Assembly (NCBI GenBank): GCA_951802425.1 | Contig: OX637802.1 | Location: 1,178,001-1,242,000, forward strand | Length of the DNA: 64,000 nucleotides | Origin: Clavaria fumosa | Taxonomy: Eukaryota > Basidiomycota > Agaricomycetes > Agaricales > Clavariaceae | Reading direction: 5' to 3' | The notes under the pieces: generated by a model | Database searches by the model: none | What the model saw: the letters and a program-made list of their open reading frames with translations, nothing else | What the model was told of the DNA's origin: nothing | Part shown: piece by piece, positions 7,500 to 62,769 of the stretch | Layout of the letters: the number at the start of each line of letters is the position of its first letter | How positions within the stretch are numbered: position 1 is the stretch's first letter | Made by a program: the position numbers and the translations under genes

Positions 7500-9525
7500 A
7501 TGGTCTCTGCCTTCATCAAACAACACGAACCCAAAACTGAGAAAGATGAAAACAAGGTCACGCACGAAATGCACATCTACAACGAAACGGAACCAGGCAT
7601 CAACCTGGGGATTTTGGAAGACACACTAGCCTGTCAAAAGGCTGAACAGGTGCAACATGCGCTTCTTCGAGCCAAAGCCCCGGGTCACAAGAAGGTGCGA
7701 GGCAATGTCACAAGCATGAGCGAGACAGCGGGCGACATCATGGGCTCAAGTGGGGCAGTGGAGGACATCGTGGGCCCCAGCAGGATGGGGGACAACGTCA
7801 CAGGCGAGACTGATCCATCGCCCATGGAGTTCCTGAGGTCGTGGAAGAAGATTGGGTTAACAAGGAGTGGAACAAGAGGGAGCAAGAGGTGTGTAATATT
7901 AGTTCTCATTTCCACTTCTTTTTCTGATCATTGAGCCATAGGACTGCAACAATTGTGTTGTGAAGGGTTGGCAGTACGAGTGCAGTGCTGCTGGCAAATA
8001 TCATCAGTGCACAGAGGACCACGGGAAATGTTCATGGGTCCAGGACTTTTGTCAGTGGCGCATCAAGAACAAGTATGGGTGGGATGACGTGCAGGTTGAT
8101 GAGGCGCTGAGGTGCGTGGAAGGGTCGGTGACAGCGGCAAAAAGTACGCCAGTGGTCGTGAGTTGAGTGGGGCCGAAATACCCCATGATACCGATCCCGG
8201 AGACTCTGACAAGGGCAGGATGGGGGAAACGAATGAGGGCAAGGTTGCGATCACCAACGCTGGGTCCGTTGACATTGAGAAGGTGAGTTGCAAGGTCATT
8301 GTCATTGAGGGGGTTGGTAGAGGAGGGAGAAAAGGTCACAGAGACTTTAGTCCCAAGAGGCAATCTCAAGAGAGAGCTCGCAACACTCTGGCAACAAGTC
8401 GCAGAGCCCACACAGAAGACAGGGTGGGTGCTGAAGTCCATGAGGGAGACGGAGTTGGAGGTGGAGTTGGCAGCGGTGAGGCGTGAATTGGAGGAGATGG
8501 AGATGAATTTTGAAATCCTCCGAGGGGAGTGGCAAAGTAAGTGATTGCTTTTTGTATTATTGCATTGCAGATTAAATTTTGCACCAACCAGAACAAGAGG
8601 TGAAGTTGAAGGAGGCATGCTGAGATTTGGAGGTAGTGAGGGGCAGACAGGCACAAAGGGGTGGAAAAGGTAAGTTTTCAATATTTCCTAGTATTCCGCA
8701 ACTTTACTAAAGTCACGAGTCTGTAGAGAAGGGCAGAGAGGTTGAGGAAGTGCATGTGGACTCAACGAAAGCATCCACATCTAGGGGAGTGCATGTGAAG
8801 GTTGCAGAGTTGACGGCATGGAAGGAGGAGGTGGAGAGAGATTTCGAGGCTCTCCATGGAGAATGGCAAGGTGAGTTTTATTTGTCTCTTCTGCATACTT
8901 ACACTTATTTCTCCTTTTTCTTTTTAGAACAAGAGGTCAATCTCCAGGGGACATGATGCAAGTTGGAAGAGGTGTGATGTGAGTTGGAGAAGTCGCAAGG
9001 AGATTACAAGGGTAAGTTTATTGGTTGTGATGGTCGAAATATATTGATTTTCACCTTCAGAATCATTGGTAATGTTGGAGGAGGCGTGGGGAGAGTCGCA
9101 GGAGATGAGGATCGCTTTAGAAGGGTCACGAGGACAGAAAGAACATGAGTGGCCAATCGAGGAATTAAAATAAGTTGATATTCAACGATTTATCAGGGAT
9201 GGACGAGGTTTCACGGGCATTGTGCAGATGGGTCAGCGAGTTCTGTGCATGGGGGCATCGCAGCTTGGAAGTCATGTTCTTTGGTTATGAAGAGCTACTT
9301 TGTAAGCTGTTGAGTGGGGTGGAGTTGTCATTGGTGACAAAGTGGGTGGAAAAAGAACAAGATCGATTATGGGCTGAATTAATGGGGTTCCCGCAAGTTG
9401 ATCAGACTGGACAGTTGTTGAAAGATGAGGAGGAAGGGAAGGAGGAAGTGGAAGGGATGGATATAGGGGGGGGAAAGGTGGTCGAAGGGTCGCGGAAGGG
9501 GAAGGAAAGGGCTTGCGACCAGTAG
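7500..9525 (+). pseudogene. Decayed copy of family-A antisense Cys-cluster/coiled-coil gene
   Basis: Colinear with the spliced gene at 21631-23676. It starts MVSAFIKQHE (intact copy MVSTFIKQHE), keeps ETEPGINLGILED, the Cys-rich segment around 7945-8040, the heptad-like RELATLWQQVAEP region (8360-8540), and the tail GSRKGKERACDQ ending at 9525. GT-AG introns occur at equivalent places, for example after GEWQ near 8536 and 8871. Two cluster cysteines are lost (QYE and KYH in place of QCE and KCR, both TGC/TGT to TAC/TAT), so the metal cluster would not form. This copy is a pseudogene but shows that the accessory gene belongs to the element family. Confidence 0.85.
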
Positions 9526-9659: not shown

Positions 9660-11648
9660 GTTGATTCGTTGCGACTCAGAGTTCCCCCAGAAACTCGTGA
9701 GTTGCTTCCTCATTGAACTCTTCATGTAGGTTGTCCATATTCTCTTCGACCTCTTTCACGACCTTGTAAGTTTCTTTGGAGTCTTCTTCTCCTTCCTCCA
9801 AGGTGAAGACAGATCATCCTGTTACTTGTTGGTCAGGGCATGCAGTGCTGAAATGGCCTGGTTTTCCACATCTCAAACACAGGTTTCCCTGATGGCATTG
9901 TTCTTGCTCTTCTTCGCTAAGTGGAACATACAACAGATTCGGATTCAGTTGGGGAGGCAGACTAAAAGGTTGCAAGGGGGTCGCGGGCATTCCTGCGGCT
10001 GGGTTAGGCGTCATAAGGTTGTTACCAGCAGGGGAATAAGGTCATGACATTGGTGAGAGGTTGGGGTTTCTGCCAGGTTGGGCAGGAGGACAAGGGGCTG
10101 GTGGGTTGGTACGGAATTGAGTCCGGCAGGTCTCGCTTTCGTATTCCCAGTGTCTCTGGTCAATCTGCATAGCCAAATCTCGTAGTTCCTGGTACATTGT
10201 GGGTCGCAGGATGACTTTCATAGCCTCCTTGATATGCGTGGACATTGAGCGATATAATTCTGATTGTAGAGCAGCTGAATTCCAGTTAGACTCGAAGGCA
10301 AATGACTCGAAGTGGATAATATGGTTCGAGAACTGCTCGTTTTTGCCCATCTGTAACCTACAGAGGTTCTGGTCTGCTTCAATCTGCATGTTTACCACTC
10401 CAAACATCCCTCCAAACTCACAAATGAATCCTTCCCACAAGTGTAAGGCTGGGTGCTCAGGATTGAATTGAAGGAGGGAGGTGTAGTGGCTCTGTGCAGT
10501 GTCTGTGAAGTAAGAGGCCACAAAAGTAACCTTCTCGTGGTCTCCCTGGAAGGTTATGGGCTTTGTGAAGAAAAGGTCATGAGGCATTCCATGATGAAGG
10601 GTTTCCATCTGGGCTGGTCGCAACCATTGAAGGGCCCGGGACATCTGCTCTCGAGTTTGAATTCTCGGGCAAGGGCATCTCAAGTCGATGGTACTTTGAT
10701 GGGAGGGGCCTGGTAATAGTAATGGTGATGGTGGGTACCAGGGGCCTCATCTTGAAGTACAGTGGTGATGTGTAGAGGCATAGGGTGGACCAGAGGGACC
10801 TGTGGAGCTTCAGCCTGAGATGGGGCATGAGATGCTGGTTGTGTCTCCATCGGAGGTACTGGTCATGCTTCCAGTTGAGAAATATGGAAGGGTTCGACCG
10901 GTATCTCAAGGTGGGGGGCAGGCTGAAGAGTTGCTTCGGTCCCTACAGGGTCACGGGGAAGTGCCCTACTTGGGGTAGCAGTTGGTTGTGTCCAAGTCAG
11001 CCAGCTGCTGCGAGGGGTGGTGTACCTAGGGATCCTGGAAATAATGGCGGGTTGCTTGTTGGGTGCAGCAGGATTCATGAAATTCTGCAGAGATTGAGCC
11101 ACTACCTGGAAAAGCGGGGCCATATCTCAGGGTCCTCTAGCAGGCTGAACCTGTCTCGAAGGTCACAAGGGAGTATCCAGGTCAGGAGGAGTCAGAACTC
11201 TGTGGTCAGTAGTTCCTGGATACTGACACTGACTCTCATATAATCAGTTCTGCTGATCTGCATGGAATCCATCCATCAATCATACCAAAGCCTCATAGAG
11301 GTTTGTGGTCTCTATGAGATACACTAGCTCTTCATCGAGGGTGCCTGTTTCATACTGGTGGCAAGTGTTCTTTAAAATCTGGTAAGTACAGAGGCGGGGA
11401 TGATCAAAGTGCAGGTAGCCAAGCTGTTCCACAAGGGACTTGGCTTCTTCACATGGGGACGAAGTGTGGCTAGGAGTGATTTGGGCGGTTTCTTCGGGTT
11501 GTGATTGAATGACAGATGCCGGTCGCTCCTGAACAGTAGTGGGCAGCTCGCAGGTGGTCTCCAAGGCCATTGGAGTAATCGCACAGCTGCCTGTGTGGGT
11601 CTGAAAGTGATGAGTAATGGGTTGGGGGGGAGTGTGACTGGTGGACAT
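9660..11648 (-). pseudogene. Family-A gag, decayed but with its N-terminal part
   Basis: The minus strand from ATG at 11648 (MSTSHTPPQPITHHFQ) through several in-frame stops to a zinc knuckle CLRCGKPGHFSTACP near 9850. It aligns with the gag of the younger copy (MAPLFQV…, FQGDHEKVTF, RSMSTHIKEAMKVI). It also holds about 125 N-terminal codons (11280-11648) that the younger copy has deleted, so it shows where gag really begins. Stops such as TGA at 11280 and in the 11100-11240 stretch make it non-functional. Confidence 0.85.
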
Positions 11649-14717: not shown

Positions 14718-14773
14718 CATCAGTACTTGTACATGTGTCTTGTGGATTGACTTGTTGAGGACTTGTTGCCTTG
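14718..14773. mobile_element. Left part of a ~213-bp TIR element split by the gypsy insertion
   Basis: CATCAGTACTTGTACATGTGTC… to CCTTG at 14773. The rest continues at 25280-25441, after the gypsy element and its target duplication. The uninterrupted relative lies on the opposite strand at 30646-30858. Confidence 0.85.
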
Positions 14774-16246
14774 TGTCAGGACCCATTCATTTTTCCTTGC
14801 CCAAGCTGACTTCACCCACATCCACGAGCTTCCCGACAACCCTCTACAACCTCACGAGTCCCTCTACACACTTCCGGGACCCACTGTCTCCTTCCGGAAG
14901 CCTCTCCAACCTCCCCCGTGCTCACACAACACTCGCGACCACCATGCTGTACTCGCGACGCTTCCTAGTACTTCATCCTATGCGCATACTTCACCCGGAC
15001 CCACCAATCCTATGCGCGACACACCGATACGCATCTACTTCCACCAGCACGTGACTTGCTGCGCCGCACCCCCAGCGCTACCACTATCAGCGCCAATACG
15101 TTACCAGTGTTACGACCGTTACTTGCGTTACCAGCGTTACCCACGTGACTACCCGCCCATAGGTCACCTGCGTCACTAGCGTCACCCACATGATCGCTCT
15201 TATGACCTCGCGACCTTAACACTCAAACGCGCCACCAACGGTCAGCTGTATGAACACTTCAAATATGCATCCCTTCTTCTCCTCAGTCGTCTATAATTAC
15301 GTTACTTATGATCCGAGAATCCCTCCGTAGTTATAGCAACGTATATACTTATTTAACTAGGTCGCGACCCGTGACAGGTCATCTTCGCGACCTTACCTAT
15401 GCATACCTAACCCCTCGCGACCTTAGTAGAACACGCGCCTAGTCACTTTACGACTAAACATACCCCGTACTACCATAGTCTTGTCGCCTGGCGACCTCTG
15501 TACTTTCCCTTTTTCATTATACTCTCTCTACGTACATATATAAGGTCTTGCATGTACTTATGGTACTCCAGACTTGATATTGACGCACATTGGTTTAAGC
15601 TTGAGGCTAGTATGCCCTTTGAGCTTGGAACCATCGCGATTGATAGGTCTTGTCTCTCTTGGTGACCACAAGATTGCCAAGACACACTCTACTCTGTCCT
15701 AACTCACCCTCTGCGCTCCTACAACTTGCATGATCTAAGTATTCTCTATTAATCGTCTTGGTACTGATCTTGGAACCCTACAGGTTCACCCGTCGGTTGG
15801 CAAAGTCATCGCCTTCACCGACACATTCTCAACACCGTCGCAACCACCGTGACCCTTCCAGCATTCTCTATTTCTTTCACCTCGTCTTTTTTCCTTCTCT
15901 ACGCTTCGTCGGTCGACCTCGCGACCTTCTCAGCGTTGTCACTTTCTCCCACCTCATCTATTCCTTTCTTCACGCTTTGTCGGTCGACTTCACGACCCTC
16001 TCAGCGTCACCCATTTCCCCCCTCCTCATCAATTACCTCCTTTACACTTAGTTTACCGACTTTACGACCTTCCCAACGACGTCTTCCTCCTCTATACTTG
16101 TCTTTCCTCGCTCTTACATCTCCTCAGACGTCTTCGCGACCTTCCGGGACCGAGCATTCTCGACTGTGCTCAACAGTTGATTGGTCTTAGCGAGTTTCCA
16201 GCATAGGTCACCAACAAGTCGATCTCCGGCACTACTATCGAGACGG
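14774..16246 (+). repeat. 5' LTR of family-A element (3' tip deleted)
   Basis: Begins TGTCAGGACCC. It matches the 3' LTR base for base in length until GAGACGG at 16246, then jumps to ATTCCGAGC, which corresponds to gag-internal sequence around 11270 of the old copy. The bases GACAGGCCCTAACA that end the 3' LTR are missing. Confidence 0.93.
15537..15543 (+). promoter_or_regulatory. LTR TATA box (TATATAA)
   Basis: TATATAAGGTC in the U3-like part of the 5' LTR. It is conserved in the 3' LTR at 24556-24562. Likely core promoter of the element; the transcription start is not visible from sequence. Confidence 0.5.
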
Positions 16247-16391
16247 ATTCCGAGCTAACCCACAGAACCGGTTATACGAGAGTCAGCGTCAGTATCCAGG
16301 GACTACCGACCACAGAGTTCCGACTCCTCCCGACCTGGATACCCCCTCGCGACCTCCAAGACAGGTTCAACCCACCAGAGGACCCCGGGAT

Positions 16392-17870
16392 ATGGCCCCG
16401 CTTTTCCAGGTCGCGGCTCAATCTCTTCAGAATTTCGCGAATCCTGCCACGCCTGATGAGCGACCAGCCATTGTCTCCAGGATCCCAAGGTACACCGCCC
16501 CTCGCAGTAGCTGGCCTACGTGGACGCAGCCAGCCACTACTCCGAGTAGGGCGTTCCCTCACGACCCTATAGGGACCGAAGCAATGCTTCAACCTGCCCC
16601 TCGCCTCGAGATTCCGGTCGAGCCCTTCCACATTCCACAACCGGAAGCGCGACCAGTACCCCAGATGGAGATGCGACCAGCATCTCGCCCTCCGTCACAG
16701 ACTGAAGCTCTGCAGGTCCCTCTGGTCCCCCCTATGCCCCCACACCCCGCCGCCGCACTTCGAGATGAGGCACCTGGAACCCACCATCACCACTACTATT
16801 ACCAGGCCCCTCCCTCCGAAGGACCATCAGCCCGAGACGCCTTCGCTCGAGAATCCAAGCTCAACACCAGACGTCCCGAACCGTTCAATGGTCGTGACCG
16901 ACGCAAGTGGAAACCTTTCGTCACGGAATGCCTAATGACTTTCTTCACCAAGCCCGTAACCTTCCAAGGAGATCACGAGAGGGTTACTTTCGCCGCCTCT
17001 TACCTCACGGACACCGCGCAGAGCCACTACACCTCCCTCCTTCAATTCAATGCCAAACACCCGGCTCTACATTCCTGGGAAGGATTCATCCCCAAGTTTG
17101 GAGGGATGTTTGGAGTGGTCAACACGCAGATTGAAGCCGACCAGAACCTTTGCTTGTTGCAGATGGGCGAAAACGAACGGTTTTCGAACCACATCATCCG
17201 TTTTGAGTCCTTCACTTTCGAATCCAACTGGAATTCGGCCGCCTTGCAATCAGAGCTCTACCGCTCGATGTCCACGCGTATTAAAGAGGCCATGAAAGTC
17301 ATTCCGCGACCTACGACGTATCAGGAACTTCGCGATTTAGCCATGCAGATTGACCAGAGACACTGGGAATATGAGAGTGAGACTCGCCGAACTCAATTCC
17401 GCGCTAACCCTCCTGCTCCCCGTCCCCCTGTTCAACAAGGTGGAAATCGCCCCTTGGCTCAACAAGGCGGAAATCGCAACTACCAGATGACATTGCGACC
17501 TTATCCAGCCGCTGGCAATAATCCTACAACACCCCGACCAGCCGCAGGGAATCCCACAACTTCGCCGCGACCTGCTAATCCGCCCCATCAGCCGAATCCG
17601 AATCCGAATCCGCCCTATGTCCCCCTCAGCGATGAGGAACGAGAATGTCGTTGTCAGGGAAATCTTTGTTTGAGATGTGGAAAACCGGGACATTACAGCG
17701 TTGCATGCCCCGATCGACGATTAGCCGGACGAGCTGTCTTCACACTAGAGGAAGGAGAGGAAGAGATCCAGGAAGAGTACGAAGTTGAGGAAGAGGTAGA
17801 AGAGGATGTGGATGACCCGCACGAAGGGTTAAACGAGGAAGCGACTCAGGAGCTTCCGGGGGAACTCTGA
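16392..17870 (+). CDS. Gag polyprotein of family-A gypsy element (N-terminally truncated)
   Basis: Structural protein that packages element RNA. The first ATG gives 492 residues. The open frame actually continues upstream through 16245 (GFRANPQN) into the LTR because a deletion removed the original start (see 11648 in the old copy). Features are a Pro-rich N-terminal third, a capsid-like helical region (residues about 160-330, FQGDHERVTFAASYLTDTA, RSMSTRIKEAMKV), a zinc knuckle CLRCGKPGHYSVACP (CX2CX4HX4C, about residue 425), and an acidic tail. It ends at 17870. Pol is open in the -1 frame and overlaps this end. Confidence 0.88.
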   Translation: MAPLFQVAAQSLQNFANPATPDERPAIVSRIPRYTAPRSSWPTWTQPATTPSRAFPHDPIGTEAMLQPAPRLEIPVEPFHIPQPEARPVPQMEMRPASRPPSQTEALQVPLVPPMPPHPAAALRDEAPGTHHHHYYYQAPPSEGPSARDAFARESKLNTRRPEPFNGRDRRKWKPFVTECLMTFFTKPVTFQGDHERVTFAASYLTDTAQSHYTSLLQFNAKHPALHSWEGFIPKFGGMFGVVNTQIEADQNLCLLQMGENERFSNHIIRFESFTFESNWNSAALQSELYRSMSTRIKEAMKVIPRPTTYQELRDLAMQIDQRHWEYESETRRTQFRANPPAPRPPVQQGGNRPLAQQGGNRNYQMTLRPYPAAGNNPTTPRPAAGNPTTSPRPANPPHQPNPNPNPPYVPLSDEERECRCQGNLCLRCGKPGHYSVACPDRRLAGRAVFTLEEGEEEIQEEYEVEEEVEEDVDDPHEGLNEEATQELPGEL

Positions 17871-18052
17871 GTCACGACGATCCGACCCCCATACTCGCGC
17901 GGGCCGCGACTAGTTCCTCTTCCCCTCAAATTCCTCGCGACCTTTCTAATACTCCCATTGCTTCCCAGTCTTCCCAATCCTTCCTCATAAAGACACAAAT
18001 ACCAGATTTCAGCTCGATTCCCTTAAATACCCTCGTTGATTGCGGCGCATCA

Positions 18053-21000
18053 ATGAATTTCATCGATTTCACCCTTGCGAACTCCCGTCCAAACCTCCTA
18101 ATGCCACTTCCGCAACCTCTACCGCTTCAATACTTCGACGGAAGTTCCTCCAGCTCCAATATAACCCACTACGTCCACGCTAATACGAAATTCCCCGACG
18201 ATACTATCCAATCCATTAAGTTCCTCGTCACTAAAACTCATCCTCTCACTCCTGTGGTTCTAGGGCTCGATTGGTTGCGAATCTGGAACCCTAGGATCGA
18301 TTGGACCAACCTCACTTTTAGTTTCGGACAGACAGCCCGCTCCGCGACTATCCCTCTCACTCTTCTGGACACGAAACCCCTGAGTAAACCTTCCCCTGAC
18401 CTCGCGAACTCGACACTGAAACCCTCTAAACCCACGCGAGTTCAATTGGTCAAGGCCACCATGCTTCGTCGATTGGAACAACAAGGAGAATTTATAGGTC
18501 TCCTATACTTCCAACCCGCGAGCAACCCCTACAACGACGAATCCATACTCGCGAGTTCCGTGACCACTCAACCCCCTCTGAAACCTGAAGAAACAGTCCC
18601 GCACGAGTATCACGACTTCCTGGACGTCTTTTCTGAAGATCTAGCCCGGGAATTACCTCTGCACCGCGACTACGACCACCGAATTGAACTTGAGGAAGGC
18701 GAAACACCTCCTCATGGGAAGCTGTACAACATGTCAGAAGTGGAGTTAAAAACGTTGAAAGATTATTTGGACGACATGTTGGACAAAGGCTTCATTCGGC
18801 CGTCGAAATCCCCCGCAGGTGCACCGGTACTCTTTGCGAAGAAGAAAGATGGAAACCTTCGCCTCTGCGTCGACTATCAAGGTCTCAACAAAATCACCCG
18901 CAAAAATCGCTACCCCATTCCTCGAATTGAGACCCTTGTCGACCAATTGCGCTTGGCCAAAATCTACTCGAAGATCGACCTCCGTGTTGGGTATAACAAC
19001 ATGAGGATAGCTGAAGGAGACGAGTGGAAAACTGCGTTCCGCACTCGCTACGGCGCGTTCAAATATCTTGTCATGCCGTTTGGACTCACGAACGCACCCG
19101 CAACCTTTCAGCACCTTATGAACGATATCTTTCACGATCTGGTCGACGTCAATGTAGTAGTCTACCTCGACGACATCTTAATCTACTCGGACAACCTCGA
19201 ACAGCATCGCGACCACGTCCGAGAGGTCCTACGACATCTACGCAAGGCAGACTTACACGCGCGACCCGAGAAGTGTGATTTCCACACCACGACGGTCGAA
19301 TACCTTGGAGTTATAGTGTCCCCCGACGGAATTGCCATGGATCCTTCAAAAATACAGGCCATTCTAAGTTGGCCCATACCCATGAAGATCCGCGACCTTC
19401 AGAGCTTTTTAGGCTTTGCTAATTTCTATCGAAGATTCATAGATAACTATTCCAGCATCGTTATTCCACTTACGCGACTCCTCCGCAAGGATACGCCTTG
19501 GAAGTGGAGCCCACGATGCCAAGAAGTCTTCAATATCCTCAAACAAGCCTTTACCGAAGCTCCCGTCCTCCGGCATTATGACCCCGATCACCCCATTACC
19601 CTCGAATGTGACGCTTCCGACTACGTGATAGCGGCCATTCTCTCTCAAACCGATCCCGCGACTAACGAGCTACGTCCCATCGCTTTCCACGCACGTACAA
19701 TGATCGCTGCAGAGCTCAACTACGACATTTACGACAAAGAGCTCCTCGCGATACACGATGCGTTCAAGCAATGGAGAGCGTACCTCGAAGGCATGCGATA
19801 CCAAATTCAGGTCTTTTCAGACCACAATAACTTTCGTTATTTCACCACCACGAAGCAACTCAGCTGTCGACAAGCCCACTGGGCAGAGTACCTTTCCAGT
19901 TTTGACTATGTAATTCATTATCGAGCAGGAAAGCTAGGTGCGAAGCCAGATGCCCTCACACGACGACCCGACGTCTACCCGAAGAAATCTGACCAACCCG
20001 TGACCAATGCACAAAACAATAAGGTCGCGATACCACCGGAATTACTTCGAGCAGCCATCATCCTCAACGAAGAAGCCCTGATTTCGCGAATTCGACATGC
20101 CCCTCACGACTCCTACTTCTCCAAGAAATCAAGGGGCGCTTCACAAGGTCGCGACAAAGCATTCTCGCTCTCGCCCGACAGTTCACTATTACTTCGAAAT
20201 GGCAAAATATACGTCCCTGACCACAACTCTCTCCGATTCGATATCCTATGCTCCAACCACAACCATAAACTACAAGGACATCCAGGTATAAGGAAGACAA
20301 CCCAACTAATAAATAGGTTGTTTTTCTGGCCAGGACTCCGAAAGGACGTAACCATCTACGTTCGTGGTTGTCACACCTGCGCAAGGGCAAAACCCGTCCG
20401 GCACAAACCCTATGGACTCCTCAAGCCCTTGCCCATAGGCGAGCAACCTTGGTCTTCGATTTCGATGGACCATATTGAAGCCCTCCCCCTCTCCGCGACC
20501 TTTGACTCGATCCTCGTCATTGTCTGTCGACTTACGAAACAAGCGATTTTTATCTCTACCAATACTACTGACACCGCAAAAGAATTAGCCCAGCATTTCG
20601 TCACCCACGTCTTTTCAAAGCATGGGCTACCCGTGGATATAGTGTCGGATAGAGGAAGATTATTTGTTTCTAAGTTTTGGTCTTCGTTATGCCAAGCTTT
20701 GGATATTACTTCAAATCTCTCCACAGCTTACCACCCCGAGACCGACGGACAAACAGAACGAGTCAACCAGGTTCTAGAGCAATATATCCGAATATATACG
20801 AACTACCAGCAAGACGACTGGAATTACCAACTCCCACTCGCCGAGTTTGTATACAATAACACCCCTCATAGCGCGACTGGTGTCTCCCCATTCTTCGCGA
20901 ACAAGAGATACCACCCAAGACTCACGATTTCCCTCGAAGGGATACCCGCACATGAAGCCCACGTGGTCGTGACCGATCTCAAGACACTCCATCAGCACTT

Positions 21001-21529
21001 ACGAGATCAACTCAAGGTCGTGAACGAGGCCTACTCGCACTTTGCGGACAGGAAGAGAGAGGTTACACCAGACTGGAAAGAAGGAACGAAGGTGTGGTTA
21101 GACTTGCGGAATGTGAAGACGAAGAGACTGATGAAGAAATTGGACTCGAAACGAGCTGGACCTTTCCCCATACTCGCGAAAGTTTTGACTCACGCATATC
21201 GTCTCCAGTTACCGAAATCGATGCAAGAAATTCATGACGTTTTCCATGTTTTGTTACTCGAAAGGGTCTACGACGACGCTTTCCCCCAGCGGCAACAGCA
21301 ACCCCCGCCCCCTATCGAGGTCGACGGCAAACAACATTATGAAGTCGCCGACATACTAGATTCTCGAAGGAGGGGTAGGAAAGTGCTTTACCTCGTACGA
21401 TGGGAAGGTTACGGACCCAAGGACGACACCTGGGAACCAATAGAATCACTTTCCGGCTTGAAGGAACTCCTCAAGGACTTCCACGCTACCTACCCGGAAA
21501 AACCTCGCGCAACTCGCGCAACTCAATAA
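18053..21529 (+). CDS. Pol polyprotein: protease, RT, RNase H, integrase, chromodomain
   Basis: 1158 residues from the first ATG. The frame is open upstream through at least 17861, overlapping gag, so translation probably comes by -1 shift from gag. The protease motif LVDCGAS lies just upstream of and across the ATG (usual form D-S/T-G, here D-C-G). RT has LRLCVDYQGLNK, LVMPFGLTNAP and the catalytic YLDD (about 19160). RNase H has LECDASDYVI. Integrase has the zinc-binding GHPGIRK and CHTCARAK, then core residues in MDHIEA, VSDRG and DGQTERVNQ. The C-terminus has a chromodomain (YEVADILDSRR, VLYLVRWEGYG, DTWEP), which in this family steers insertion to modified histones. No internal stops, so it looks functional. 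Confidence 0.95.
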   Translation: MNFIDFTLANSRPNLLMPLPQPLPLQYFDGSSSSSNITHYVHANTKFPDDTIQSIKFLVTKTHPLTPVVLGLDWLRIWNPRIDWTNLTFSFGQTARSATIPLTLLDTKPLSKPSPDLANSTLKPSKPTRVQLVKATMLRRLEQQGEFIGLLYFQPASNPYNDESILASSVTTQPPLKPEETVPHEYHDFLDVFSEDLARELPLHRDYDHRIELEEGETPPHGKLYNMSEVELKTLKDYLDDMLDKGFIRPSKSPAGAPVLFAKKKDGNLRLCVDYQGLNKITRKNRYPIPRIETLVDQLRLAKIYSKIDLRVGYNNMRIAEGDEWKTAFRTRYGAFKYLVMPFGLTNAPATFQHLMNDIFHDLVDVNVVVYLDDILIYSDNLEQHRDHVREVLRHLRKADLHARPEKCDFHTTTVEYLGVIVSPDGIAMDPSKIQAILSWPIPMKIRDLQSFLGFANFYRRFIDNYSSIVIPLTRLLRKDTPWKWSPRCQEVFNILKQAFTEAPVLRHYDPDHPITLECDASDYVIAAILSQTDPATNELRPIAFHARTMIAAELNYDIYDKELLAIHDAFKQWRAYLEGMRYQIQVFSDHNNFRYFTTTKQLSCRQAHWAEYLSSFDYVIHYRAGKLGAKPDALTRRPDVYPKKSDQPVTNAQNNKVAIPPELLRAAIILNEEALISRIRHAPHDSYFSKKSRGASQGRDKAFSLSPDSSLLLRNGKIYVPDHNSLRFDILCSNHNHKLQGHPGIRKTTQLINRLFFWPGLRKDVTIYVRGCHTCARAKPVRHKPYGLLKPLPIGEQPWSSISMDHIEALPLSATFDSILVIVCRLTKQAIFISTNTTDTAKELAQHFVTHVFSKHGLPVDIVSDRGRLFVSKFWSSLCQALDITSNLSTAYHPETDGQTERVNQVLEQYIRIYTNYQQDDWNYQLPLAEFVYNNTPHSATGVSPFFANKRYHPRLTISLEGIPAHEAHVVVTDLKTLHQHLRDQLKVVNEAYSHFADRKREVTPDWKEGTKVWLDLRNVKTKRLMKKLDSKRAGPFPILAKVLTHAYRLQLPKSMQEIHDVFHVLLLERVYDDAFPQRQQQPPPPIEVDGKQHYEVADILDSRRRGRKVLYLVRWEGYGPKDDTWEPIESLSGLKELLKDFHATYPEKPRATRATQ

Positions 21530-21630
21530 TTTTCCTCGCCTCTTTCTCGTTTTTTCTTCACTTTCTCACTTCGGATTTCACAGCAATTCATATATACGCA
21601 ATAAAAATACAACAAGAAAATTTTTATTTA

Positions 21631-23676
21631 CTAGTCACGAGCTTTCTCCTTCCCTTTTCGCGACCCTTTCGCCTCGTCTACCTCCTCCACACTGGGACTC
21701 CTCTCCTCCGCCTGTCTTCCCTCCTCTTCCTCAATCAATCGTCCCTCCCCGTCCACTCGCGGGAACCTCGCGATCTCGTTTCGCAGATGGAATTGCTCCG
21801 CCATCACCCAGCTATACAACTTCAACTTTTCTTGTGACTTCTCGATTCTTCTCCACAAGTCGTCAAAACCGAAGTATACCGTTTCAAGGACGCGCCGCCC
21901 ACGAGCATGGGCAGCGTCGCGTTCTTCCGTAACGGCCTCCAGCATGCCATGAAGAGCTACAAGAATCATCAGTAATGATACCCTGATAATTCACCAAGCC
22001 ACTTACCTTGTTCCTCTCTCCTCATTGCCACTATTTCACTCCTCAACTCCTCGAACTCCTTACATGTCTCCTCTACCGCCGCCAACAACTCTGCGAATAC
22101 GACTTAGTTATTTCGTACTCGTGACCACAAAACTCACCTTTTTCCCCTTCCTGCGACTTTTTCAAGTCTTGTTGTACTTCCCTCAACTTCACCTCTTGGT
22201 CTAGACAAGATAGAAATGTCAATTCACCAACTAGAGAGATGACGAGATAATTGCTCACCCTGCCACTCCCCATGCAAAGCCTCAAACTCCCTCTCCGCTC
22301 CCTCTGCCCGTACTCTCAATTCCGCAACCGCTGGGTCCACAATCTTCGACGCAGGCACCTTCGACGATCTCTCCTGCGCCCCCTCTACTTCCTTGCCCTT
22401 CCCTAAAAACTCGCGAGTTCGGTAAAAAGTCACTGAACACAAAGAAGACTCACCTTTTGCGCTTTTCCGCGCCTCCTCCAACTCGCGTCTTGCCACCACC
22501 AGCTCTCCCTCTAACTCCACTTCCCTGTTAGATTTCTCCAACCACAACGTCTTCCTTGAGGGCTCCGCGACCTGCTGCCTCAACGTCGCGAGTTCCCTCT
22601 CCAACTCCTCTCTCGTCCCAGACTCTTGTGACGAGGTCGTCGCCTTCGCCCGCACCATCGTCATGACCTGCTTCAACCTCCTCACCTCCTCCTCACTCTT
22701 TTTCAGCCGCCCTTCCAACCAGCGCTCCTTCGTCGCCCTTGAAGAATCTTGACTTCTTCCTCACAGTCCATCACCTTCCGAAGCAGCCGCCCCTTCTCTC
22801 CCGGGGTTGCCAGAACCCGTGCCTTCTCCGCACAAACCTTCGCGACATTCGTTAGACGCACCGGCGCGTCTTCCTCCGTCTCCGTTTCCTCCTCCGATGG
22901 ACTCCCGACTCGCCTCTTCGACGTCGAAGGACCTGGCATCGGCGACCGCGACCTTGCCCTCACTCGTTTTCCGTGCCCTGCTTGCGTCGGGGTCCCCGGA
23001 ATCGATAGGGCGGGAAGTTTTCCCCCCACTCGGCTCGCGACCTTGGGCGCCCCTGTGCCCCCCGTTTCTGGCCCATCGATGCGCTTCAACGCCTCATCCA
23101 CCCGGGCATCATCCCACCCAAGCTGGGCCTTGACGTGCCACCAATGAAAATCTTGGACCCACGAACATTTTCCGTGGTCCTCTGCACACTGACGACACTT
23201 GCTGGCAGTACTGCGTTCGCACTGTCGGCCCTTCGACACGCAATTCTCACAATCCTACAATCCAGCAGTTAGAAGAACGAATAGGAACGAGAATTATTAT
23301 TACGCACCTCCCGTTCCCTCTCATTCCAATCCTTGTTCTCCTTAACTGACCCAATCTTCTTCCAAGCCTTCGAGAACTCCGCAGACGTTAGGTCCACCGT
23401 CTCCGTGACATTCTCTTCTGCCCGACTTGGGCCCGCGACGTTGTCCCTCGTTTCGTTGGGATCTGCGACCCTACTTCTCTTCTTTTTGCGCTTCTCGACT
23501 TCTTCCCAGGAACGCGCACATCGTGCCTGTTTGGCCTTTTGACGGGCCAGCGCGTCTTCCAGGATTCCCAGGTTAAGGCCGGGTTCCGTTTCATCGTATA
23601 AGCGCATTTTGCGCGCGACCTCGTTTTGGTCGTTATCGGTTTCGGTTTCGTGTTGTTTGATGAAAGTGGAGACCAT
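21631..23676 (-). CDS. Antisense accessory gene: Zn2Cys6-like cluster plus coiled coil
   Basis: Spliced gene opposite to pol. Exons I read: 23676-23308, 23254-22454, 22402-22259, 22200-22138, 22090-22007 and 21956-21631. Introns are 47-58 nt with GT-AG ends. Exon 1 encodes MVSTFIKQHETETDND… to ERERE. Exon 2 opens with DCENCVSKGRQC then KCRQCAEDHGKCSW, giving C-X2-C-X6-C-X7-C-X2-C-X6-C, the spacing of fungal Zn(II)2Cys6 DNA-binding domains. Then comes a Ser/Pro-rich linker and Glu/Lys-rich heptad-like sequence to a basic tail KGSRKGKEKARD. A frame change near 22730, without a plausible intron, means one indel in this copy. Function is unknown: possibly DNA-binding or a regulator of the element. 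The ATG lies 116 bp from the 3' LTR. Confidence 0.8.
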
Positions 23677-23779
23677 GGTGGTTTGACTTAGAGAAAAATT
23701 TCGGGTGTCGTGACTTGATCAACAAACATTGTGCTGACTAATCATCACGTGACCTCCACTCTCGCAGGGCTCGAGGCTT

Positions 23780-23792
23780 GAAGGGGGGGTAA
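23780..23792 (+). promoter_or_regulatory. Polypurine tract of family-A element
   Basis: GAAGGGGGGGTAA sits directly before the 3' LTR and is the expected plus-strand primer site for reverse transcription. The equivalent in the old copy is at about 7387-7400 on the minus strand. Confidence 0.8.
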
Positions 23793-25279
23793 TGTCAGGA
23801 CCCATTCATTTTTCCTTGCCCAAGCCGACTTCACCCACATCCACGAGCTTCCCGACGACCCTCTACAACCTTGCGAGTCCCTCTACACACTTCCGGGACC
23901 CGCTGTCTCCTTCCGGAAGCCTCTCCAACCTCCCCTGCACTCACACGACACTCGCGACCACCATGCTGTACTCGCGACGCTTCCTAGTACTTCATCCTAC
24001 ACGCATACTTCACCCGGACCCACCAATCCTATGCGCGACACACCAATACACGTCTACTTCCACCAGCACGTGACTTGCCACGCGGCACCCCCGGCGCTAC
24101 CACTATCAGCGCCAATACGTTACCAGCGTTATGACCATTACTTGCGTTACCAGCGTTACCCACGTGACTACCCGCCCATAGGTCACCTGCGTCACTAGCA
24201 TCACCCACGTGATCGCTCTTATGACCTTGCGACCTTAACACTCAAATGCGCCACCAACGGTCAGCTGTATGAACACTTCAAATATGCGTCCCTTCTTCTC
24301 CTCAGTCGTCTATAATTACGTTACTTATGATCCGAGAATCCCTCCGTAGTTATAGCAATGTATATACTTATTTAACTAGGTCACGACCCGTGACAGGTCA
24401 TCTTTGCAACCTTACCTATGCATACCTAACCCCTCGCGACCTTAGTAGAACACGCGCCTAGTCACTTTATGACTAAACATACCCTGTACTACCATAGTCT
24501 TGTCGCCTGGCGACCTCTGTACTTTCCCTTTTTCATTATACTCTCTCTACGTATGTATATAAGGTCTCGCATGTACTTATGGTACTCCAGACTTGATATT
24601 GACGCACATTGGTTTAAGCTTGAGGCTAGTACGCCCTTTGAGCTTGGAACCATCGCGATTGATAGGTCTTGTCTCTCTTGGTGACCACAAGATCGCCAAG
24701 ACACACTCTACTCTGTCCTAACTCACCCTCTGTGCTCCTACAACTCGCGCGATCTAAGTATTCTCTATTAATCGTCTTGGTACTGATCTTGGAACCCTAC
24801 AGGTTCACCCGTCGGTTGGCAAAGTCATCGCCTTCACCGACACATTCTCAACACCGTCGCGACCACCACGACCCTTCCAGCATTCTCTATTTCTTTCACC
24901 TCGTCTTTTTTCCTTCTCTATGCTTCGTTGGTCGACCTCGCGACCTTCTCAGCGTTGTCACTTTCTCCCACCTCATCTATTCCTTTCTTCACGCTTTGTC
25001 GGTCGACTTCGTGACCCTCTCAGCGTCACCCATTTCCCCCCTCCTCGTCAATTACCTCCTTTACACTTAGTTTACTGACTTCGCGACCTTCCCAACGATG
25101 TCTTCCTCCTCTATACTTGTCTTTCCTCGCTCTTACATCTCCTCAGACATCTTCGCGACCTTCCGGGACCGAGCATTCTCGACTGTGCTCAACAGTTGAT
25201 TGGTCTTAGCGAGTTTCCAGTATAGGTCACCAACAAGTCGATCTCCGGCACTACTATCGAGACGGGACAGGCCCTAACA
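23793..25279 (+). repeat. 3' LTR of family-A element (1487 bp)
   Basis: TGTCAGGACCC to CAGGCCCTAACA, with complete TG…CA ends, followed by the target duplication CCTTG. It carries the same TATA motif and the same tandem GTTACCAGCGTTAC block as the 5' LTR. Confidence 0.95.
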
Positions 25280-25441
25280 CCTTGTTGAGAACTTTTATGC
25301 TACTTTTGGTGGTCCCATCACCTTGATTACCTTGTACAAGAAATGGGACCTACTTGTTCAAGGCAGACAAGTCATTAAAAAGGTTGAAAAAGTCATGAAA
25401 AAGGTTAAAAAGGCAACAAGACATTTGTAAAAGTGCTGATG
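25280..25441. mobile_element. Right part of the split ~213-bp TIR element
   Basis: CCTTGTTGAGAACTTTTATG… to AAAAGTGCTGATG. Joined to 14718-14773, minus one CCTTG, it matches the reverse complement of 30646-30858. The 25442-26008 stretch beyond shows no gene or recognised repeat. Confidence 0.85.
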
Positions 25442-56749: not shown

Positions 56750-57309
56750 TGTCAGTCCGAGTCCCTCACAGAAGCGAGAAGGGGAAAGAAGCTCGATTTC
56801 AACATGAGGGCCTACACTCATTACAAAGACATTATATATACCGGGGGAAGGGGGCTGTGTAGGGGATGAGTCATAAGTAAGAGAAACGGGGCTATGCGCT
56901 CTGAGTCGTGCGGGATAGGGGAGGCAATGTAGGGAAAAGGGGATACCGAATAAGGAAGGTAGCGGTGAGGTACGGATGTGGGGAGGACGACAGAGGGAAT
57001 GCTTGGCGCGGTCTTGGCTGCCCGAGGGGAGACCTCAATTAGACCCGTTTAGGTTAGATTGATTGATGGGGGACGTCAGAGGCATTTTTGCTGATCCGCC
57101 TCCATCACAAATTGCAAAGCGTGGGAAATCGTAAGGAACGTGGATGGGGGCACATGATGGGTGCTGGGCGTGGGCCTATAGGCGCCTGGGGAGCCGCAAG
57201 TGTAGAGTTGAGGTCGCGGGTGGTCACGTGATCCCATGCTCGGTCCTCGTAACTAGATCCTAGCGCGTTGTGGACTCAGTGACGGTGGCTTACGTAATGG
57301 ATCCTGACA
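56750..57309 (-). repeat. 3' LTR of family-B element (560 bp)
   Basis: On the minus strand TGTCAGGATCCATTACG to GGACTGACA. Flanked outside by GTATT and inside by the polypurine tract. Confidence 0.93.
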
Positions 57310-57320
57310 TGGCCCCCTCC

Positions 57321-60300
57321 TCAAGGCTGGGCGTCTTGACCAGCCAATCGCGCCTTGTCCGGGTGCTTGAGGAAGAAGTCGCGGAGAAGAATTGCGGTGT
57401 TGGTAAGGTTCTGGTGGGGTTCCCAGGTATTTTCTTCAATGGGGTAGTCTAGCCACTTTACCAGGTACTTCACTCCTCATCCTACTCTCTTCACATCCAG
57501 GATCTCTTCGACCTCATACTCCAAATGGTCGTCGTCGATGGTCGGGGGGGGCGGAGGTGGTCGGGCTTGAGAAGCGAAAGAAGGAGGGATGAACAGGGTG
57601 AGGAGCAACTCATTAAATACGTCATGGATTCGCCAGGCCGGGGGCAGTTTGAGGCGATATCCAGCTGGCCCCACCTTTTCTATGATAGTGAAAGGTCCAG
57701 CGCATTTGTTGTCGAGTTTCTTGTTTGGGCGGTCCATTTTCAAGTTTCGCGTGTCGAGCCAAACTAAGTCTCCCTTCCCATACTCGCGGCTGGGTCGTTT
57801 TCCGCTGTCGTAGCTTTTCTTCATTGCTAGCGCGGCTTTCTCCATGGCCTCTTTGGCAGCATGTCGCGACTCTTCCAACTTCGCAATCCACTCATCAGCA
57901 GCTGGGTTCACTTCTGTCCGCGGGTGTATACCTCCATTCCAGGGGTGTCGGCTGTAGTCCAAGAAGAAGGGCGTGTAGCCTGTCGCGGAGTGTTCCCGGT
58001 TATTCAACGCAAATTCCGCTGTGCTCAACCACTCCGCCCAATCGTCCTGGAGATGGTCGACGTATCCCTGCAGGTAGGTCTCAATCTCCTGATTTACCCG
58101 TTCTGTTTGTCCGTCAGTTTGGGGATGGAAGGCAGTGCTCGGGTTAGCCTTTATCCCAATCATCCAGTAGAATTCCTTCATGAATTGAGAGACAAACTGT
58201 GGGCCACGATCACTGATGACCTTCTGGGGGATTCTGTGGTTCCGGAATACTCGGTTGCGGAGGATCCTCACTGCTCCCAGGCTCGTCAAGTCGAAACCGA
58301 TTGCTTCGATGAGAGTGCGCTTGGTGAACTTGTCGACGATCACAAGGATGGAGTCAAACCCGCGGGATTGCAGTAACGGTCCTACTATGTCCCAGCTGAT
58401 CGCCCACCATGGGCCGTTTGGGACTGGGTGTGGGTGTAGAGGTGCGGCGCGTTTGGTTCGATCAGGCTTGGTTCTCTGGCAACCTTCGCACCCGGACACG
58501 TACTTCTCCACATCCTTCACCATCTCGGGCCACCAGTAGGCCTTGACCATCGCGGCCTTCATTTTCTTTATTCCGGGGTGTCCTGCAATGGGGAGGTCGT
58601 GCTCGTAGTTGAGCACCACCTCGCGAATGGTTGCGGGTATCCACACAGTGTTGTTTCTCCACCAAAGCCCAAGGCGGTCTTGCGTCCAGCTGTCATCAAT
58701 CTCCGTGGGCTTCGTGACGTGTTCCGCGCTCTTCTTCTGGAGGAGCGTCTCCATTTCCGAGGTAAAGCTGGTGCATACGTCCATGTCGGTGGGGAGCACC
58801 TGGACGGGGGCATCTTCCTCGGCAGCATCTCCGTAGTCTGGCCTTCGCGAGAGGGTATCAGCTTTGGTGTTGCTTTTGCCAGTCCGATACTTGATCTCGA
58901 AGTCGAAACTTTGGAGTTCTCCATACCAGCGTATCTGTCATGGCTTCAGTTTTTGGGGCTTCCTGAAGTACTGCAGGTTGGCATGGTCCGTCCAAATTTC
59001 GAAGGTCTCATCCACTCCCACGAGGTACGCTCTCCACTCTCTTAAGGCTCTGATGACTGCGAGGAGCTCTTTATCATAGACATCATAATTCCTCTCGGCA
59101 GCTGTGAGGGCCTCGGAGATGTAGTCAACCGGTCTCCAGGTTCCATCAGGCTGCTGCTGTGAAAGAACACCACCTGTTGCGAGGTTACTCACATCCGTTT
59201 CTACCTTCCATTTGCCCATGTCCTGGGGTAGGGTGAGGACCGGGGCTGAGATGAGCGCTCCTTTCACATCCAGGAAAGCTGCGACCTGTTCGCTCTGCCA
59301 ACACCAGGGGACGTTGCCAGTGAGCTTAAACAGGGGTTTGGCTCGCGTGGACAGGTTGGGGATGAATCTCCGCAAGTGGTTGACCATACCCAGGAAGTGT
59401 TGGAGTTCTTTGACGTTTCAGGGCACGGGCCAGTTTCGGATGGCTTCCACCTTGGCCGGGTCATGCTCAAGGCGGTTGTGTGAGAGCCTGAGCCCAAGGT
59501 AGAACACCTCAGCCTTCTCGAACTCACATTTACTCAGCTGGAGGCACAGCCCATTCTTGCGGAATCTCTGCAGGACTCGGTCCATCAAGTAATGGTGGGT
59601 CACAAGGTCATCCGCGAAGATGATGACGTCATCGATGTATGTGAGGACATGTCCGCTGGCAATCTCTTCTCTCAGAATGTGGTTCATGAATCTCTGAAAG
59701 GTCGTGGGGGCATTCTGGAGTCCGAACCACATTACCGTAGGTTCGAACAAGCCTTGCGATGTTAAGAACGCGCATCTCTCTTGGTGCCCCTCCCACAGCC
59801 TCATAGACGGAAATCCCCCCTTCGCATCGATCTTGGAGAAGATTCTGGCTCCACGCAACTTGTCTACACAGTTGCAGATACGTGGCAGTGGGAACTTATC
59901 TTTGATCAGAAATGAATTAAGGCATGAATAGTCGATGATCGGTCAGAGTTTGTCCTTTTCTCGCTTGAAGAAGAACGGACTGGCATAGGGCGATTTCGAA
60001 GGTCTTATCCTCCCTGATGCGAGCTGTTCGTCGATCCACCTGTTCATCTCAACCGTTTCTTCTCTTGTCAGCGAGTATAGTTTGGAGGATAAGTGGCCCG
60101 GGTCCTTGCGGAACTCGATCTTGATGTCAAAATCGGGTCGCGGCTTGGGTAACTCATCCCACTTCGCTTCGCTGAAGACTGTTGGGTATAGCGACGGCCA
60201 GTCGGGTACATCTCCAGAGTCCGAAAAGCGGATTTCCATAGTTGTTTGTAGCGCATTATCCCATATACTGCCTTTCGGGTAGGCCCAAGGACTCGCGAGG

Positions 60301-60869
60301 CACGGGTCGAAGTGGCAACTTTGGGGGCAGCGTTTGAAGGAGACCTTCCCTAGTGGCCAATCGATCTCGGGGTTGTGTTTGGACAGCCAGTCATGCCCCA
60401 AGATGATCTTGTGCGATTTGGCAGCTCCGAGCAAGAAGTGTATTCGCTCCTGGTGGTCCCCTATTGTTAGCAGGAGGTCGATACCATAGCGGATCGGTCC
60501 GTTCTTGTTTGCCGAGCTGTCCACGTTATACACTTTGATCGGGTTTTGTAGTGGGACAGGTTCCAGTCCAAGTTCCTTACACCAGGCCAAGTCCATAAAA
60601 CAATTGGTACAACCTGAGTCGATCAAGACCTTAACGCCTCCCCATTCAGCCATAGTCAGAGTCTCAAAGTGCGCTGGTAAGGTCAACTCCCTTTTCTGCC
60701 TCTTTGATTTCTCTTCCGCAACTTTTGTTGTTCTGTTGTCCTCAAGTTCATTTGTGCCCCGAGCATGTCTCCGTTGCAAGATTGTGTATTTGGGTATACT
60801 TGCTACGGGTACAGGGGTGGGGGCGGGAACGTTGCTCGTATTATTACAGAGATGTGAGTTCAGACTCAC
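57321..60869 (-). pseudogene. Family-B pol: protease to chromodomain, with four TGA stops
   Basis: Single frame on the minus strand from 60869 (MSLNSHLCNN), overlapping the gag stop by 4 nt, to a TGA at 57321-57323. Protease VLIDSGCTNCF; RT SKIDAKGGF, catalytic YIDDVIIFAD (about 59640); RNase H WKVETDVSN, YDVYDKELLAVI; integrase GHPGIKKMK, CEGCQRTK, WDIVGP, ISDRGPQFVS, DGQTERVNQ; chromodomain YEVEEILDVKR, VKYLVKWLDYP, NTWEP. Internal stops fall in KL*P (about 59940), VP*N (about 59416), KP*Q (about 58935) and VG*G (about 57475). Each is TGA where Arg CGA fits, so this looks like C-to-T decay of a once intact gene. Confidence 0.92.
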
Positions 60870-62750: not shown

Positions 62751-62769
62751 GGGGTGGACGTTGAAATTG

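What the first reader, a model, noticed from the sequence alone, without database searches (positions are those of the whole stretch)
21631..23676. Opposite-strand, intron-containing gene with a Zn2Cys6-type cluster inside a Ty3/gypsy element
Between pol and the 3' LTR, on the strand opposite to gag-pol, I read a gene with at least five GT-AG introns. It encodes C-X2-C-X6-C-X7-C-X2-C-X6-C followed by a Ser/Pro linker and long charged heptad-like sequence. That cysteine spacing is the fungal Zn(II)2Cys6 signature (established). Introns show it is expressed from its own promoter, not from element genomic RNA, whose sense strand would not splice it. A DNA-binding, dimerising protein encoded by a retroelement could regulate the LTR, guide integration, or counter silencing (inference). 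I know of no description of this arrangement in fungal gypsy elements, but cannot search.
Basis: partly seen in the sequence, partly recalled or inferred. Interest (0 to 1): 0.88.

Follow-up and report, generated by a model that had tools for sequence, protein, structure and literature searches.

The report
Hypervariable antisense gene in fungal retrotransposon
A family of fungal jumping genes carries, on the strand opposite its replication genes, a gene split by five to eight predicted introns and kept by natural selection; its protein is predicted to be a zinc-cluster, coiled-coil DNA binder that would likely regulate the element, and the gene differs between copies far more than the DNA around it.

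Summary
Of the 40 best pol 3' ends scored in this genome, 39 have the gene within 1.5 kb on the opposite strand. All five introns keep GT-AG ends in 12 of 20 aligned copies. Three of ten further loci, picked for open frames, give open 8-9-exon models. omega is 0.21-0.30 in 17 of 17 between-subfamily pairs and about 0-0.03 in the six-cysteine cluster. The cysteine spacing fits Zn(II)2Cys6, but PF00172 scores below cut-off and no structural match was found.

Unexpected: five elements 91-96% identical to the window's at the pol end carry gene exons only 52-83% identical to its own. Divergence starts and stops with the coding region, and gene and pol trees conflict (AU p 0.00015).

[quoted passage not shown] fungal Boty brtn), so the arrangement is not new. 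I found no description of many introns, a zinc-cluster coiled-coil product or a hypervariable cassette. LTR regulation is inferred; no RNA data are held.

The parts
14769..14773 (.). target-site duplication CCTTG, 5' side
   Evidence: read; same five bases at 25280-25284
14774..16260 (+). 5' LTR (end approximate)
   Evidence: 96% identical to the 3' LTR
16191..17870 (+). gag open frame (stop to stop)
   Evidence: Retrotrans_gag and CCHC knuckle listed but below cut-off
17816..21529 (+). pol: RT, RNase H, integrase, chromodomain
   Evidence: RVT_1 1.7e-36, Chromo 8.6e-14
23308..23676 (-). antisense gene exon 1 (ATG at 23676)
23255..23307 (-). intron 1 (GTGCGT..TTGTAG, 53 nt)
22454..23254 (-). 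exon 2: zinc cluster, Ser/Pro basic linker, start of coil; 16 bp missing at 22741/22740
23165..23251 (-). six-cysteine cluster C-x2-C-x6-C-x7-C-x2-C-x6-C
22740..22741 (-). junction of the 16-bp deletion that breaks the frame of this copy
   Evidence: 5 of 5 other copies aligned there have the bases
22403..22453 (-). intron 2 (51 nt)
22259..22402 (-). exon 3 (144 nt)
22201..22258 (-). intron 3 (58 nt)
22138..22200 (-). exon 4 (63 nt, 21 aa = 3 heptads)
22091..22137 (-). intron 4 (47 nt)
22007..22090 (-). exon 5 (84 nt, 28 aa = 4 heptads)
21957..22006 (-). intron 5 (50 nt)
21631..21956 (-). exon 6: C-terminal part and stop; 45% identical to the L037 last exon, which is modelled as a helical hairpin
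23677..23792 (-). 116-nt leader between the gene and the 3' LTR, with the purine tract of the element; candidate site of the antisense promoter together with the LTR edge
   Evidence: position and sequence only; the 100-bp bin from 23700 is 90-96% identical between the window and seven other copies, five of them with a strongly diverged gene
23793..25279 (+). 3' LTR
25280..25284 (.). target-site duplication CCTTG, 3' side

Best explanation
The region is an accessory gene of a chromodomain Ty3/gypsy retrotransposon family, encoded opposite gag-pol between pol and the 3' LTR and kept by purifying selection, and its spliced product is predicted to be a zinc-cluster, coiled-coil protein that likely binds element DNA as a dimer and regulates transcription from the LTR. 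Shown: location, strand, intron structure, spread in this genome, selection, near-invariance of the cluster, heptad register of the coil, and different gene versions on near-identical elements with conflicting gene and pol trees. Inferred: an antisense promoter at the inner edge of the 3' LTR makes the mRNA, which is spliced; introns survive each round because the genomic RNA carries them in reverse complement. Also inferred: the near-invariant cluster reads a site shared by all the elements, while the coil and C-terminus, which vary, set the dimer partner or cofactor. The closest functional analogue would be the spliced antisense regulator HBZ of HTLV-1.
For: Gene within 1.5 kb of pol on the opposite strand at 39 of 40 scored pol ends. 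All five introns with GT-AG in 12 of 20 aligned rows, the other 8 being truncated, lacking an end exon or missing one site. Three open models of 8-9 exons (L037, L039, L045). Internal exons of 63, 84 and 42 nt are whole heptads and keep the frame, so their number can change without breaking the coil; exon 3 (87, 99 or 144 nt) keeps the frame but is not a whole number of heptads. One a/d register holds 64, 64 and 56% hydrophobics against 41-43% in shuffles, reached by 0, 0 and 1 of 2000. omega 0.21-0.30 in 17 of 17 between-subfamily pairs, 0.35-0.63 in 4 close pairs. In six of those pairs, sense-strand shifted frames give 0.85-1.24 and two reverse frames 0.90-1.47; dropping CpG changes leaves 0.18-0.26. 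Cluster dN 0-0.028 with dS 0.75-0.91 in three pairs. PF00172 is the best Pfam match to the bare cluster, E 0.2. The model puts short helices just after the first and fourth cysteine, as I recall for Gal4-type clusters. An unnamed ENA protein, P0001, has the cluster with the same spacing, 63% identity over residues 101-240.
Against: No RNA, binding or nuclear-localisation data. PF00172 stays below its cut-off and is not reported on longer pieces. Foldseek finds no match for a low-confidence model (pLDDT 58). Profile search of solved structures finds nothing. LTR divergence does not follow gene type: the window LTR is 95% identical to that of L037, whose gene exons are 53-74% identical. That argues against type-specific LTR recognition, though not against a shared site read by the cluster. 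CGG/CCG pairs, the usual Zn2Cys6 sites as I recall them, are not enriched in the LTR. One reverse frame also has low omega (0.34-0.43), which I read as the mirror of the true frame's third positions; it holds 2-4 stops. None of the 20 copies is open to the family stop.
Confidence: 0.42

Rival explanations
1. It is a counter-defence protein: a nuclear factor that blocks host silencing of the element, diversified by an arms race with the host.
For: The gene is far more diverged than pol and LTR. The window DNA at 25300-56700 is strongly CpG-depleted (o/e 0.36) while the element is not (1.12), which suggests a CpG-directed mutational or methylation pressure. Accessory genes with extreme diversity are often counter-defences (general knowledge).
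Against: omega 0.21-0.30 between subfamilies and below 0.4 in each of five domains in three pairs shows constraint. No similarity to known suppressors in the libraries searched. The cluster is near-invariant.
Confidence: 0.2
2. It is an element-versus-element recognition module: old gene lineages are kept by frequency-dependent selection because elements of one type repress or exclude others of the same type, as immunity repressors do in phages.
For: Near-identical elements carry deeply diverged versions (between-type dS 0.7-1.2). Gene and pol trees conflict (AU p 0.00015). Four combinations of exon-1 and last-exon types exist, one of them in a single copy.
Against: LTRs, the expected operators, do not sort by gene type. 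Simple recombination between old families without selection for diversity gives the same pattern.
Confidence: 0.13
3. It works after transcription or at integration: a coiled-coil nucleic-acid-binding protein that packages RNA or tethers the integration complex to chromatin.
For: Long coil and zinc cluster; a strand-biased motif TCGCGAC, 22 on the plus strand against 5 in the element, could be an RNA signal.
Against: Made, if at all, from a separate antisense mRNA; gag already has a CCHC knuckle candidate (below cut-off) and pol a chromodomain.
Confidence: 0.1
4. It is a captured host gene riding as a passenger.
For: Introns and the fungal-type cluster look host-like; a free-standing open copy without a nearby LTR exists (L045).
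Against: Present at 39 of 40 scored pol ends, old diversification with omega about 0.25. L045 still has 226 bp of the pol 3' end behind it, so it descends from an element. None of the 16 PF00172 places in this genome is among the gene places listed, whose lists are cut.
Confidence: 0.05
5. Only the antisense RNA matters (duplex formation with genomic RNA); the open frame is incidental.
For: Antisense transcripts of elements can feed RNA silencing (discussed in PMC7264820).
Against: Codon-level constraint in the gene's frame, conserved cysteines, heptads kept across introns.
Confidence: 0.03

Closest known systems
brtn of Boty-like Ty3/gypsy elements (Botrytis, Sclerotinia), Zhao et al. 2011, Virology 417:248
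   Same: Fungal chromodomain gypsy element with an additional antisense gene between pol and the 3' LTR. I saw only the title in reference lists and short passages in PMC7264820, PMC8365987, PMC4227169 and PMC5987419; the paper itself is not held.
   Different: Sequence, intron content and domains of brtn could not be compared. I recall no zinc cluster or exon-built coil reported for it (unchecked).
Retand antisense genes with the TRP28 domain (PF04195), PMC11963269
   Same: Antisense, between pol and 3' LTR, nearly always present, proposed DNA binding and regulation (abstract and passages).
   Different: Plant non-chromovirus elements; TRP28 domain, not listed for the proteins scanned here; the word 'intron' does not occur in that paper's main text.
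Grande gene23 (maize)
   Same: Antisense accessory gene with its own promoter and a nuclear product (passages of PMC7264820 and PMC11963269).
   Different: No shared domain known to me; different host kingdom.
HBZ of HTLV-1
   Same: Antisense gene with its promoter inside the 3' LTR (passage of PMC7264820); nuclear, critical in the virus life cycle (passage of PMC11963269); spliced bZIP regulator (recalled).
   Different: HBZ is a bZIP (recalled); here a zinc cluster plus coil, with five to eight predicted introns, in an element with no env found between pol and LTR.
Fungal Zn(II)2Cys6 regulators (PF00172, Gal4 type)
   Same: Cysteine spacing, basic residues in the loops, cluster followed by linker and coil (general features recalled).
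   Different: Below the Pfam cut-off (12.3 against 21 bits); no match to a solved chain; a long exon-modular coil and a C-terminal helical part follow.

Membership tests
Ty3/gypsy chromovirus (host element) | RT-RNase H-integrase order with chromodomain at the pol end, LTRs and 5-bp target duplication | tested here: met
   (RVT_1, RNase H, H2C2, Chromo above cut-off; rve core at 28.6 bits just below its cut-off of 32.6)
Antisense additional gene between pol and 3' LTR (aORF-3R kind) | opposite to gag-pol, between pol and 3' LTR | tested here: met
Antisense additional gene between pol and 3' LTR (aORF-3R kind) | present in most copies and conserved as protein | tested here: met
   39 of 40 scored pol ends (40 of 197 candidates were scored); omega 0.21-0.30 between subfamilies
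TRP28 (PF04195) antisense genes of Retand | TRP28 domain | tested here: not met
   not listed in Pfam scans of window pieces, the L027 product and P0001
Boty brtn | sequence homology to brtn | not testable with these tools
   brtn sequence and paper not held
Fungal Zn(II)2Cys6 cluster (PF00172) | C-x2-C-x6-C-x5..12-C-x2-C-x6..8-C | tested here: met
   (spacing limits recalled)
Fungal Zn(II)2Cys6 cluster (PF00172) | profile score above the curated cut-off | tested here: not met
   12.3 bits, cut-off 21, on a 38-residue piece of L037; not reported for longer pieces
Fungal Zn(II)2Cys6 cluster (PF00172) | two-helix binuclear fold | tested here: inconclusive
   helices at residues 3-8 and 21-27 of exon 2, mean pLDDT 58; no Foldseek match; second look unhelpful
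Fungal Zn(II)2Cys6 cluster (PF00172) | zinc and DNA binding | not testable with these tools
   needs protein
HBZ-like antisense regulator | transcribed from the 3' LTR and spliced | not testable with these tools
   position and splice sites fit; no RNA data
HBZ-like antisense regulator | bZIP domain | tested here: not met
   no bZIP model in the Pfam listings

The most novel reading that the evidence does not exclude
A retrotransposon carries a hypervariable, recombination-swapped regulatory cassette: one near-invariant zinc cluster joined to many old coiled-coil versions assembled from whole-heptad exons. Near-identical elements keep different versions because dimer compatibility decides which elements control, exclude or escape one another (or the host), a self/non-self system inside a transposon population.
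Probability: 0.2. Interest if true: 0.88.

Novelty: new variant of a known kind. Interest (0 to 1): 0.68.

Why it matters
Antisense accessory genes of LTR elements have been known for years without an assigned role (passages of PMC7264820 and PMC11963269). This family offers what would make the role testable: a recognisable metal-cluster signature under near-absolute constraint, a coil with symmetric whole-heptad exons, conserved introns that make antisense transcription easy to detect, and many natural gene versions on almost the same element backbone. That makes the question 'what does an antisense gene do for a retrotransposon?' directly testable. The sharp limit of divergence at the coding region suggests that retrotransposons can keep and trade old alleles of one gene, which a specialist would not expect.

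Tried and rejected
Rejected: chance pattern (0 of 5000 shuffles); two-copy curiosity; recent host-gene capture; non-coding explanation.

Tried without result: Pfam, NCBIfam and PDB sequence searches gave only weak coil matches and the sub-threshold PF00172. Foldseek on the exon-2 model found nothing (the VIA second look had only 3 chains to align, so absence there means nothing); on the C-terminal model it gave 289 hits at E <= 10, none at 0.001. Homolog searches found one relative, P0001 (the C-terminus gave none). P0001 seems to read through intron 1, so that collection's gene calls may miss spliced fungal proteins; distribution over species is open.

CGG/CCG pairs are not enriched in the LTR; CACGTG (3 against 0.3) and GCGAC (10 against 1.1, single-base shuffles) are. 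LTR divergence does not track gene type.

Counting limits: the genome search scores only part of its candidates, so copy numbers are lower bounds, and matches are exon pieces, several per locus; the lists are cut. The ten loci were picked for open frames, so '3 of 10 open' is not a genome rate. The predictor was trained on six family copies; its models of L009, L028, L038, L040, L041, L042, L043, L044 and L046 contain some implausible introns and are not claimed as real throughout. L038, L041 and L042 were still used in the omega pairs (L041 also), with short mispredicted stretches in them. The 'Bw' gene combination rests on one copy, L012, next to a nested LTR; L014 and L019 were set aside there because their last exon is unrelated. 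Of the gene places first seen, longer flanks were fetched for 20 and gene-sized pieces for 8 more. Novelty searches: (open-licence papers only).

Full report
Check of the observation. A Ty3/gypsy element lies at 14774-25279, with LTRs 96% identical and a CCTTG target duplication. Its pol carries RT, RNase H, integrase zinc domain and chromodomain; gag domains are listed below cut-off. On the opposite strand, between pol and the 3' LTR, I confirm a gene of six exons with five GT-AG introns, the six-cysteine spacing, a Ser/Pro-rich basic linker and heptads. This copy is broken: 16 bp are missing in exon 2 relative to five of five other copies aligned, between two copies of an 8-bp direct repeat, and the frame is lost after about residue 305. 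L032 breaks at the same place; L033 has the same exon lengths and first stop.

Spread. The 2.1-kb region gave 61 DNA match pieces from 40 scored of 203 candidates. By protein, exon 2 gives 192 matches (144 of 230 candidates scored) and exon 1 153 (150 of 186), several pieces per locus. The 821-bp pol end was searched and 40 of 197 candidates scored; 39 of those 40 have a gene piece 484-1455 bp away, every time on the opposite strand. The one without a listed gene is at C13:291861. Another gypsy element in the window (56750-63349, pol on the minus strand) has its LTR within about 170 bp of the pol frame and so no room for such a gene.

Gene structure. In 20 aligned copies, 12 have all five introns with GT-AG ends; the rest are truncated, lack an end exon or miss one site. 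Intron lengths drift without regard to three, while exons 3 and 4 stay at 144 and 63 nt in 16 and 18 of the 20. None of these 20 is open to the family stop; L027 runs to a stop about ten residues early. Among ten further loci that I chose for open frames, L037, L039 and L045 give open models of 9, 9 and 8 exons with proteins of 558, 558 and 575 residues by their exon lengths. Introns after exon 2 in L037 and L045 are all in one phase by the printed exon lengths. The internal exons of 63, 84 and 42 nt encode 21, 28 and 14 residues, whole heptads, so their number can vary without losing frame or coil register; exon 3 (87, 99 or 144 nt by subfamily) keeps the frame but is not a whole number of heptads. 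A single heptad register puts hydrophobics at 64, 64 and 56% of a/d positions against 41-43% in shuffles.

Selection. Nei-Gojobori omega is 0.21-0.30 in all 17 between-subfamily pairs and 0.35-0.63 in four close pairs, one of which has an interval reaching 1.09. I read this as selection during element life followed by decay after insertion. Controls on six pairs: sense-strand shifted frames give 0.85-1.24, two reverse frames 0.90-1.47; one reverse frame gives 0.34-0.43, which I take as the mirror of the true third positions, and it holds 2-4 stops. Dropping codons with changes at CpG leaves 0.18-0.26. By part, three pairs: cluster about 0-0.03, C-terminus 0.17-0.22, coil 0.22-0.26, linker 0.25-0.32, exon 1 0.27-0.39.

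The protein. The cluster has all six cysteines plus K8, K19, R21 and K29 of exon 2 invariant in nine sequences including P0001; L046, not in that alignment, has lost the fourth cysteine. PF00172 is the best Pfam match to the bare cluster, nearly full length but 12.3 bits against a cut-off of 21. Longer pieces, PDB sequences and Foldseek give nothing usable. The model of exon 2 has pLDDT 58, with helices at 3-8 and 21-27, just behind the first and fourth cysteine, as I recall for Gal4. So 'works like a Zn2Cys6 protein' is plausible; 'is a member' is not established. The last exon is modelled as a helical hairpin (pLDDT 71 overall, block means 80-93 over residues 1-70) without a significant match. 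P0001, 385 residues, 46% identical over 65% of the L027 product, shows the same exon 1 - readable intron 1 - exon 2 order and ends where intron 2 would start (the intron reading is mine).

Hypervariable cassette. Comparing the window with L037 in 100-bp bins, pol and the stretch behind it are 94-98% identical, identity is 40-89% in the bins from 21600 to 23600 that hold the gene, and 94-97% in the leader and LTR edge. LTRs are 95% identical, pol ends 96%, yet exon 1, exon 2 and the last exon are 74, 67 and 53% identical. L038, L039, L041 and L027 show the same shape with pol ends 91-93% and gene exons 52-83%; their LTRs are 92% (L038), 90% (L027) and 83% (L041), and that of L039 was matched over 384 bp only, at 90%. 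The LTR-edge bin of these copies is lower (0.65-0.83), partly because the loci end there. L028, with pol 86% and LTR 80%, is diverged throughout. L009 is of the window's type throughout; L011 differs mainly in the linker. The last-exon tree groups window, L009, L010 and L011 (100/100), while the pol tree rejects that group (AU p 0.00015). Four combinations of exon-1 and last-exon type occur, one in a single copy. So old versions of the gene appear to be exchanged between elements by recombination, most simply by template switching between co-packaged RNAs (inference).

Mechanism. I commit to LTR regulation by a dimeric zinc-cluster protein made from an antisense promoter at the 3' LTR edge. 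Consistent with it: cluster constraint, coil, basic linker, position. Inferred: promoter, nuclear entry, DNA target. A candidate target is TCGCGAC, seen 22 times on the plus and 5 on the minus strand of the element and once in 31.4 kb of other window DNA, with ten GCGAC sites in the window LTR against about 1.1 in single-base shuffles. Its strand bias also fits an RNA signal. Against type-specific repression: LTRs do not sort by gene type; CGG/CCG pairs are not enriched.

Known relatives. Plant elements have antisense genes at this place (Grande, RIRE2, Retand, PvRetro13; passages of PMC7264820). Retand's TRP28 proteins are predicted DNA binders (abstract and passages of PMC11963269). In fungi, Boty carries brtn (title and short passages in PMC7264820, PMC8365987, PMC4227169, PMC5987419; original not held). 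The main text of the Laccaria bicolor element survey PMC3411680 does not contain the word antisense (term search and passages). The arrangement is therefore known. Multiple introns, zinc cluster with exon-modular coil, and the swapped hypervariable cassette did not turn up in listings of open-licence papers. New variant of a known kind.

Noticed in passing
14774-25279: Strand-biased motif TCGCGAC: 22 on the plus strand, 5 on the minus, against 0 and 1 in 25300-56700; CTCGCGAC occurs 19 times in the window against 0.44 expected. Ten GCGAC sites in the 3' LTR against 2 in the other orientation. Possible binding or RNA signal.
   Followed up: partly
L045 (G000:C2:4888150-4890600), with near-identical scores at C1:5283927, C4:9590 and C11:2832838: Free-standing open copy of the antisense gene with 226 bp of pol behind it and no LTR match in the 3.6 kb upstream; a 51-bp LTR-like piece lies about 2.2 kb into the other flank. 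All four places are within about 155 kb of a contig end, two within about 10 kb; only the C2 copy was fetched. Candidate for host use or spread with subtelomeres.
   Followed up: partly
L048:731-1522 minus strand: Next to L045, another open frame with C-x2-C-x6-C-x8-C-x2-C-x6-C and coil-like sequence, not recognised by Pfam as a zinc cluster: possible host relative of the cluster-plus-coil architecture.
   Followed up: no
L014-L021, L024-L026: Eleven copies, several near contig ends, with gene and LTR but no window-like pol upstream of the gene, and an RT-like piece beyond the LTR. In L014, L019 and L024 the last exons are replaced by other sequence: possibly a composite or non-autonomous derivative.
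   Followed up: partly
7500-8325 (+): Second, broken copy of the antisense gene in the window, plus strand, opposite the gag remnant at 9676-11273.
   Followed up: partly
window: CpG observed/expected is 1.12 in the element and 0.36 in 25300-56700: this suggests a recent insertion in a genome with strong CpG loss; some stops in old copies look like CpG transitions (by eye).
   Followed up: no
22740 and L032: Same frame break and exon-2 length in a copy only about 77% identical to the window region, at an 8-bp direct repeat: recurrent slippage or recombination.
   Followed up: partly
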